From Natronolimnohabitans innermongolicus JCM 12255 (lineage in GTDB: Archaea > Halobacteriota > Halobacteria > Halobacteriales > Natrialbaceae), in the NCBI RefSeq assembly GCF_000337215.1, contig NZ_AOHZ01000034.1, forward strand, positions 1-43,176: a DNA stretch of 43,176 nt, read 5' to 3'. This document shows, piece after piece, positions 11,614 to 40,122 of this stretch. The position numbers were made by a program, and so were the translations under genes. A model generated the notes under the pieces. The model ran no database searches. It had not been told where the DNA came from and saw nothing but the letters and a program-made list of their open reading frames with translations. Within the stretch, counting starts at the first letter, position 1, and the number at the start of each line of letters is the position of its first letter.

Positions 11614-11614
11614 G

Positions 11615-11720
11615 ACTGCCGGACAGAACTATTCACCGTCGGTCGTACGACTGCGGCCGTCTCCAACGGTGACGGCCGCGAATTCGCGACCGACGTTTCA
11701 CTGACTGCTGTCCAGCAGTA
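11615..11720. repeat. MITE-like repeat element, copy 1
   Basis: This 106-bp element starts ACTGCCGGACAG and ends with a near inverted copy (CTGTCCAGCAGT). Inside, GCGGCCGTC pairs perfectly with GACGGCCGC across a 9-base loop, followed by GAATTCGCG. It aligns nearly end to end with 20121-20230. Both copies directly follow a stop codon. Confidence 0.8.
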
Positions 11721-20121: not shown

Positions 20122-20230
20122 TACTGCCGGACAGCACGAGTTGACGTTCGGTCGCGCGACTGCGGTCGTCGCCGTCGGAGCCGACCGCGAATTCGCGCCC
20201 GACTGCGCACTGACTGCTGTCCGACAGTAT
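20121..20230. repeat. MITE-like repeat element, copy 2
   Basis: This is the second copy of the element at 11615-11720. Terminal repeats are ACTGCCGGACAG and CTGTCCGACAGT. The internal hairpin is kept by paired changes: GCGGTCG pairs with CGACCGC, where copy 1 has GCGGCCG and CGGCCGC. GACTGCGG, GCGAATTCGCG and ACTGACTGCTGTCC are shared. It begins at the last base of the flavoprotein stop codon. Confidence 0.8.
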
Positions 20231-39575: not shown

Positions 39576-39636
39576 TTCGAGACGCGACCTGATTTCCAAG
39601 AACGTAGCCGCCGCTCACGTACTGTTCGAAGCGACA

Positions 39637-39720
39637 TGCGAGGGTTGGGATTTGAACCCAAGGACCCCTACGGGAGCGGGTCTTAAGCCCACCGCCGTTG
39701 GCCTGCTTGGCTACCCTCGC
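39637..39720 (-). tRNA. tRNA-Leu (anticodon UAA)
   Basis: The 84-nt gene has the acceptor GCGAGGG pairing with CCCTCGC and discriminator A at 39637. The anticodon stem GTGGG/CCCGC surrounds the loop CTTAAGA, giving anticodon TAA. A long variable arm (class II) is followed by a T arm with GGTTCAAATCC. CCA is not encoded. No intron is seen. The upstream 5' flank is duplicated at 40036-40122. Confidence 0.95.
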
Positions 39721-39807
39721 ACAGAAGTGCACTTGAAGATAGTGCCTCCCTGGGAATGTGCGTTTCGATGTTCGCGTCGCGAGCGAACGACGTGAGCGAG
39801 CGAGTCG
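39711..39807. repeat. Direct repeat, tRNA-Leu 5' end and upstream flank (copy A)
   Basis: This stretch, from the last bases of the intact tRNA 5' end through ACAGAAGTGCACTTGAAG and on to GAACGACGTGAGCG, is repeated at 40027-40122 with only a few changes. It is the promoter side of the tRNA gene, so both copies may keep promoter activity. Confidence 0.85.
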
Positions 39808-39930
39808 AGGAATCCTCCGGCAGGAGGTGACGAGGCTTTTGGTGGAGATGTTGCCAGTGAAGTGAGTGACGAGCGGGTGCAACCCGTGAGTCACGAACGA
39901 AACGCAGCAAAAGGTCCCGGCGTCATCGGT

Positions 39931-40036
39931 CCACCGCCGTTGGCCTGCTTTCCCATCGACCGAGACCAGTGATCGGATTCGCCCAAAATGGGCGAATTCG
40001 TGAACACGTTCGGTCAATGGGAGTGGCTATCCTCGC
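39931..40036 (-). pseudogene. Split partial copy of tRNA-Leu (5' half)
   Basis: On the minus strand this reads GCGAGGATAGCCA (tRNA positions 1-13, one change), then 73 unrelated bases (39951-40023), then AAGCAGGCCAACGGCGGTGG, the next tRNA bases up to the anticodon stem. The 3' half is absent, so no functional tRNA can form. The insert begins and ends with 12-bp inverted repeats (CCCATCGACCGA and TCGGTCAATGGG) and has an inner ATTCGCCC/GGGCGAAT hairpin. Confidence 0.85.
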
Positions 40037-40122
40037 ACAGAAGTGCACTCGAAGATAGTCCTCCCTGGGAATGTGCGTTTCGATGTTCGCGTCGCGAGCG
40101 AACGACGTGAGCGGGCCAGTCG
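40027..40122. repeat. Direct repeat, tRNA-Leu 5' end and upstream flank (copy B)
   Basis: This is the counterpart of 39711-39807, offset by about 316 bp. It starts in the 5' end of the broken tRNA copy and runs to GAACGACGTGAGCG. The few differences (for example CTCGAAG for CTTGAAG) show that the duplication is not brand-new. Confidence 0.85.

What the first reader, a model, noticed from the sequence alone, without database searches (positions are those of the whole stretch)
39931..40036. Half tRNA-Leu copy split by a 73-bp palindromic insert
A second 5' half of tRNA-Leu is interrupted after tRNA base 13 by a hairpin-forming insert with 12-bp inverted ends and an inner 8-bp stem. Integration usually duplicates tRNA 3' ends, so a duplicated 5' half with such an insert is unusual. 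It could be a tiny mobile element, an attachment-site scar or a processed RNA.
Basis: seen in the sequence. Interest (0 to 1): 0.6.

Follow-up and report, generated by a model that had tools for sequence, protein, structure and literature searches.

The report
Transposable hairpin inside half-tRNA gene copy
Next to a normal leucine tRNA gene, this salt-loving archaeon has a promoter-bearing copy of the gene's first half, and an old hairpin from a widespread family of tiny mobile elements sits inside it; the half copy itself is shared by several related genera.

Summary
Upstream of intact tRNA-Leu(UAA) lies a second promoter plus tRNA bases 1-32, split after base 13 by a 74-nt hairpin. Two separate things are present.

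(1) The insert is a divergent, old member of a dispersed haloarchaeal palindromic element family (78- and 108-bp forms, ends TACTGYCGGACAG). The family model matches 83 of 392 genomes of the order. Intact copies are flanked by TNA direct repeats, often exactly at a gene's stop codon. At least 23 members with recognisable ends lie in this genome, two of them elsewhere in the window. A profile trained without this copy still finds it (22.5 bits; 0 of 3000 palindrome-preserving shuffles reach that). G044, from another genus, has the same insert at the same base. This copy has no target duplication.

(2) The host half-gene is a conserved unit in 11 of 125 family genomes (6 genera): promoter, tRNA 5' half, a short tail that closes a hairpin, T4, and a terminator-like element whose motif also follows genes across haloarchaea.

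'Processed RNA' remains possible: transcription is inferred, no RNA data were available. I found no report of either part in the papers searched.

The parts
39636..39721 (-). intact tRNA-Leu (anticodon UAA)
   Evidence: ARAGORN; RF00005 50.1 bits in the whole-genome search
39722..39807 (-). leader/promoter region of the intact tRNA-Leu, repeated upstream of the half copy
   Evidence: direct repeats; 95% identity of the two 55-nt leaders
40024..40036 (-). half copy, tRNA bases 1-13 (one change, G7 to A)
39950..40023 (-). 74-nt palindromic insert in the D arm/D loop; divergent member of a dispersed palindromic element family
39931..39949 (-). half copy, tRNA bases 14-32
39913..39930 (-). short tail; its CGCCG pairs with CGGCG of the tRNA half and closes a hairpin just before T4; ACGCCGG kept in 11 of 11 carriers
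39835..39912 (-). terminator-like element M (TTTTGCTGCG, variable hairpin, TGGCAACATCTCCACCAAAAGC); unique in this genome, same kind of motif follows genes elsewhere in haloarchaea
40037..40122 (-). promoter/leader copy of the half gene; conserved box CGAAACGCACAT at 40071-40082
   Evidence: promoter role inferred, not tested
20122..20229 (+). 108-bp member of the same element family, flanked by TGA/TGA; the left TGA is the stop codon of a 447-codon ORF
11614..11720 (+). 107-bp member of the same element family, flanked by TGA/TGA; the left TGA is the stop codon of a 150-codon ORF

Best explanation
An old copy of a short non-coding palindromic transposable element (MITE-like) lies in the D-loop region of a pre-existing, conserved half-gene of tRNA-Leu(UAA). 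The half-gene most likely arose once by a local duplication of the tRNA-Leu promoter and 5' half that joined a terminator-like 3' element. It has since been kept similar to the intact gene by gene conversion, and is often lost by recombination between the two direct repeats. Shown: the anatomy, the dispersed element family with TNA target duplications, the shared insert in two genera, and the conserved half-gene unit in 11 of 125 family genomes. Inferred: that the element moves by a transposase supplied in trans; that the unit is transcribed into a short RNA (about 57 nt, or about 130 nt with the hairpin) ending at T4; that gene conversion explains the matching leaders; that losses explain the patchy presence.
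For: Insert: a model of the window and G044 inserts alone found further copies at unrelated places (a thioesterase gene in G009, G275 and G196; one in G058; one beside tRNA-Ser in G281). The enlarged model matches 83 of 392 genomes, at least 12 matches in some. A profile trained on 30 members without window and G044 finds the window insert at 22.5 bits (E 3.8e-6) and the G044 insert at 18.3; the best of 60 shuffled windows gives 14.0, and 0 of 3000 palindrome-preserving shuffles reach either score (best 10.2 and 10.9). In this genome, 23 members found in the stretches fetched have 107, 108, 75 or 78 bp, and 17 of 23 have identical 3-bp flanks, all TNA. The exact end occurs 39 times in this genome and 302 times in G001 of the same genus; reversed-pattern control 1 and 0. 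Half-gene: 11 of 125 family genomes with the same junction 40-41 nt from the tRNA start, or 114-116 with the insert. ACGCCGG is kept in all 11 and GACCTTTTGCTG is near-invariant (11 of 12 columns), while the next 40 nt (mean identity 0.53) and the leaders (0.66) have diverged. Leaders are more alike within a genome (mean 0.89) than between genomes (0.71).
Against: The insert has no target duplication (GCCA|insert|AGCAGG against GCCAAGCAGG in the tRNA) and its ends (CTCCC..GGGAA) do not match the canonical TACTG..CAGTA; its tie to the family rests on the core. In the thioesterase insertion the repeated flank is only 2 bp (GT) in three of four copies and absent in the fourth. No autonomous element with paired ends, TNA flanks and 400-3500 bp length was found in the stretches searched. 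Only one base pair changed on both sides between the window and G044 inserts, so those two alone say little about selection on the hairpin. The half-gene is absent from most family genomes, and G048 carries two decayed copies, which suits a dispensable sequence. Leaders of G223 (74%) and G314 (58%) are not homogenised.
Confidence: 0.7

Rival explanations
1. The half-gene makes a stable regulatory RNA (a genetically encoded 5' tRNA half), and the hairpin insert has been taken over as an extra domain of that RNA in two genera.
For: Own promoter box, nearly invariant tRNA half, conserved tail that pairs with it, and T4 plus terminator-like element. In G223 and G314, where the two leaders have drifted apart (74% and 58% identical), the half-tRNA sequence is still unchanged. 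The insert folds on its own and leaves the tail hairpin intact.
Against: No RNA data. Patchy presence (11 of 125) and decayed copies in G048. In the two insert carriers the loop after base 32 has drifted from the tRNA sequence. Conversion by the intact gene could keep the tRNA half invariant without any function.
Confidence: 0.25
2. The half copy is a pure pseudogene made by duplication and kept alike only by gene conversion; the insert is a passenger.
For: Leaders within a genome are mostly nearly identical; frequent absence; decayed copies in G048, remnants in G013 and G028.
Against: The tail ACGCCGGGACCTTTTGCTG is not part of the intact gene, so conversion cannot keep it, yet it is nearly invariant over 6 genera.
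Confidence: 0.3
3. The insert is an archaeal tRNA-type intron cut out by the splicing endonuclease.
For: It sits inside a tRNA sequence without extra bases, as an intron would, and has intron-like length.
Against: No bulge-helix-bulge with a full central helix and outer helix at the insert's borders in window or G044; the host is only half a tRNA.
Confidence: 0.03
4. The half copy is the scar of a virus or plasmid that integrated into tRNA-Leu.
For: tRNA genes are usual targets (established knowledge); 3'-end copies lie near many tRNA genes here.
Against: The duplicated part is the promoter and 5' half. The junction is the same in 11 genomes and is followed by a conserved terminator-like motif that also occurs away from tRNA genes. 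Only about 200 nt separate the copies.
Confidence: 0.05

Closest known systems
[quoted passage not shown]
   Same: Short, non-coding, inverted ends, dispersed copies, short target duplications at intact copies
   Different: The whole 78-bp element is one imperfect palindrome with a conserved asymmetric internal loop; no parent transposon found here; this copy lacks the duplication
Small mobile repeats SMR-A/SMR-B of Haloquadratum walsbyi (PMC3119063, section 25 read)
   Same: 80-110 bp, inverted ends, not tied to a known transposon
   Different: SMRs are said to make no target duplications and to hit other mobile elements; this family has TNA duplications and often sits at stop codons. Sequences could not be compared (supplement not read)
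Split or trans-spliced tRNA genes of Nanoarchaeum and relatives (PMC4390854 and PMC3491384, search listing only)
   Same: A separate gene copy with the 5' half of a tRNA and its own promoter region
   Different: A complete tRNA-Leu(UAA) gene lies next door; the tail pairs with the half itself; a separate 3' half gene was not searched for genome-wide
tRNA-derived fragments such as the Haloferax 5' Val-tRF (recalled, not from a call)
   Same: An RNA containing a tRNA 5' part in a haloarchaeon
   Different: Those are cut from the tRNA; here a dedicated gene copy would make it, if transcribed
Haloferax intergenic transcription termination sites (PMC7237163, passages read)
   Same: T stretch at the 3' end, sometimes with a hairpin
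   Different: The M element adds a conserved hairpin and a GGCAAAANCTCCACCAAAAGC motif; its terminator role is inferred from position only

Membership tests
MITE | short, non-coding, terminal inverted repeats | tested here: met
   74 nt, outer stem about 13-15 bp, too short for a transposase
MITE | several dispersed copies in genomes | tested here: met
   family members in 83 of 392 genomes; 23 in the stretches of this genome fetched. This exact insert has no close second copy here
MITE | target duplication at the insertion | tested here: not met
   not at this copy (GCCA|AGCAGG); present at 17 of 23 members in this genome and 12 of 19 in 400 kb of G001
MITE | inverted repeats shared with an autonomous transposon | tested here: inconclusive
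   no 400-3500 bp pair with TNA flanks in the stretches searched; whole genome not readable as a file
tRNA intron | bulge-helix-bulge at exon borders | tested here: not met
Split tRNA gene | tRNA available only by joining of two half transcripts | tested here: not met
   complete tRNA-Leu(UAA) present
tRNA attachment-site scar | tRNA copy bounds an integrated element, usually with integrase | tested here: not met
   copy is promoter plus 5' half, a recurring unit without an element between the copies; integrase genes were not searched for
Functional tRNA-half RNA gene | transcript from the unit | not testable with these tools
   no RNA data; promoter and terminator inferred

The most novel reading that the evidence does not exclude
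Natrialbaceae carry a dedicated gene that makes a 5' half of tRNA-Leu(UAA), closed by its own hairpin and terminator, and two genera have built a transposable hairpin into its D loop as an RNA domain: a genetically encoded tRNA half rather than a cleavage product.
Probability: 0.25. Interest if true: 0.75.

Novelty: new variant of a known kind. Interest (0 to 1): 0.5.

Why it matters
tRNA halves are usually thought to be cut from whole tRNAs. A conserved half-tRNA gene with its own promoter and 3' signals would give a simple genetic handle on tRNA-half function in archaea. The palindromic element family, with about 300 ends in one relative and often exactly at stop codons, could reshape gene 3' ends across haloarchaea.

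Tried and rejected
Plasmid and phage collections searched with the window insert: only weak partial matches of no meaning. Plasmids searched with a family sequence: 5 records, 4 of which led to the 107-108 bp form. Rfam: nothing for the insert. (gathering threshold) reported nothing at all for the window although the tRNA scores 50 bits, so I do not lean. The weak mir-3145 match (31.6 bits against a cut-off of 98) was dismissed. Antisense action of the tail on the tRNA: pairing exists but is short and bulged, not pursued. Intron: no bulge-helix-bulge. Autonomous partner: none found; a right-end sequence shared by L170 and G001 proved to be ordinary shared chromosomal sequence. One scan of genome contigs gave 36 stretches, of which two (Natronosalvus hydrolyticus, Natrinema mahii) are the half-gene; I did not examine the other 34, whose titles name bacteria. 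One search's 14 matches: 10 are the half-gene, 4 (L035, L036, L037, L039) are not. Papers: searches; none of the four end strings is printed in the library, and no half-tRNA-Leu gene report turned up in the listings of 59 and 70. Structure prediction was not used.

Full report
Check of the observation. On the minus strand the window has an intact tRNA-Leu(UAA) at 39636-39721. About 300 nt upstream of it lies a second promoter/leader plus the 5' half of the same tRNA. The half is cut after base 13 by a 74-nt insert (39950-40023) that folds into one long hairpin. It beats all 200 shuffles as DNA, and the 141-nt RNA around it folds at z -2.8. Coordinates and description are right.

The host: a recurring half-gene. 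A first search with the 196-nt stretch matched 36 of 100 relatives, mostly through the tRNA-Leu leader itself; several genomes showed two copies 230-320 nt apart. A covariance model of the half-gene RNA gave 11 strong matches among the 125 genomes of the family: G000, G012, G018, G033, G044, G052, G223, G311, G314, G351, G413, from 6 genera. G048 has two weaker, decayed ones (53.6 and 40.8 bits). Seven matches at 34-37 bits remain; the three of them I looked at (L133, L135, L138) are ordinary tRNA-Leu genes. L048 (Natronosalvus hydrolyticus) and L065 (Natrinema mahii) show the same sequences as G314 and G223, so I take the family to be Natrialbaceae. Most of the 25 other loci printed have a ferredoxin-like gene or another gene shortly before the single tRNA-Leu; G013 and G028 keep remnants of the 3' element.

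Anatomy of the half-gene: leader with a conserved CGAAACGCACA box, tRNA bases 1 to about 36, then NNACGCCGGGACCTTTTGCTGCG, a variable hairpin, and a GGCAAAANCTCCACCAAAAGC-like motif. The tail's CGCCG pairs with CGGCG of the tRNA half just before T4. Over the 11 carriers tRNA bases 16-32 are invariant; bases 1-13 differ once in the window and once in G351, and the loop after base 32 has drifted in the window and G044. GACCTTTTGCTG has 11 of 12 invariant columns, whereas the next 40 nt have a mean identity of 0.53 and the leaders 0.66. Leaders are more alike within a genome (mean 0.89) than between genomes (0.71), with G223 and G314 as exceptions; this suggests gene conversion. The tail is absent from the intact gene, so conversion cannot have kept it.

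The 3' element M is unique in this genome, but its motif occurs in 125 of 392 genomes of the order, often in many copies, with reversed controls near zero in nearly all genomes (G021 is an exception with 12 control matches). In the 30 loci shown, many copies begin directly after a stop codon, and one follows tRNA-Thr. Haloferax intergenic termination sites are T stretches, sometimes with hairpins (PMC7237163, passages read). I therefore read M as a terminator; this is inference from position.

The insert: a dispersed palindromic family. A model built from the window and G044 inserts alone matched 7 of 125 family genomes at E <= 0.001, five of them new. Three of the new copies sit in the same thioesterase gene, one is in G058, and one is beside tRNA-Ser. 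In the two thioesterase loci translated, the element brings a stop in frame. Rebuilt with these, the model matched 83 of 392 genomes in several families; only 12 candidates per genome were scored, so copy numbers are floors. The sequences share a core (AAC..ATTCGCC..GGCGAAT..TCA.TG) and often the ends TACTGYCGG..CCGRCAGTA. In the 7-sequence alignment 15 of 25 pairs show changes on both sides, and no shuffle of 500 reaches the covariation score; related sequences can inflate that control. Between window and G044 alone only one pair does so.

Because structure models can reward any palindrome, I trained a sequence-only profile on 30 members without window and G044 (the 108-bp L171 was also left out). 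It finds the window insert at 22.5 bits and the G044 insert at 18.3. The best of 60 shuffled windows is 14.0, and none of 3000 palindrome-preserving shuffles of either insert reaches it. The same profile pointed to two 107-108 bp members in this window, at 11614-11720 (14.2 bits, near the shuffle maximum) and 20122-20229 (16.3 bits); their ends and TGA flanks settle them. In the fetched stretches of this genome 23 members were found by their ends; 17 have identical 3-bp flanks, all TNA. In 400 kb of G001 it is 12 of 19. The flank is exactly the stop codon of an ORF of at least 100 codons in 12 of 23 and 7 of 19 cases, against 617 of 4000 random TNA sites. Selection against insertion inside genes may explain this as well as targeting. 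The exact end occurs 39 times in this genome and 302 times in G001, with controls 1 and 0.

Age of this copy. G044 is of another genus. Its nearest relative here, G020, and the window's genus-mate G001 both lack the half-gene. Third codon positions of the neighbouring ferredoxin-like gene differ by 36% between window and G044, while the inserts agree in about three quarters of positions. One old insertion, kept in two lines and lost elsewhere, or exchanged between lines, fits. The insert's ends have drifted and there is no target duplication, which I cannot explain. Removal of the insert as an intron is not supported.

Reading. I regard the insert as a divergent member of a MITE-like family; it works like a MITE, but formal membership fails one test at this site (no duplication) and another is open (no parent transposon found). 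I regard the half-gene as a conserved local unit whose transcription is likely but unproven. What seems new, as far as the papers searched go, is the family itself, its frequent place at stop codons, and the half-tRNA unit. Haloquadratum MITEs and small mobile repeats are the nearest described kind (PMC3119063, passages and section 25).

Noticed in passing
downstream of tRNA-Leu(UAA) in 28 of 43 loci, e.g. L135, L138, L038; in this genome in 16 of 40 tRNA stretches, e.g. L249, L265, L286: Units of about 115 bp, often in tandem, end in a copy of the tRNA 3' end; around tRNA-Leu it is preceded by its inverted complement and follows each genome's own tRNA sequence. Not beside the window's tRNA-Leu. 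Similar look after a tRNA-Pro in another family (L037).
   Followed up: partly
window 11614-11720 and 20122-20229; G001:C1 (L208-L227): The 108-bp palindromic elements often sit exactly on a gene's stop codon, duplicating it; G001 of the same genus has about 300 element ends.
   Followed up: partly
L116, L117, L118, L143: The same palindromic element sits at the same place of a thioesterase gene in four genomes, with an in-frame stop in the two translated; in G009 the rest of the gene stays open.
   Followed up: partly
G001:C1:264203-264281 and 291353-291431: Possible sister subfamily with ends TACGG..CCGTA and TCA or TGA flanks.
   Followed up: no
haloarchaeal loci L084-L113: A widespread 3' element (CCTTTTGCTGCG, hairpin, GGCAAAAGCTCSACCAAAAGC) often directly after stop codons, up to 14 copies per genome; looks like a terminator class; not checked against Rfam apart from the window copy.
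   Followed up: partly
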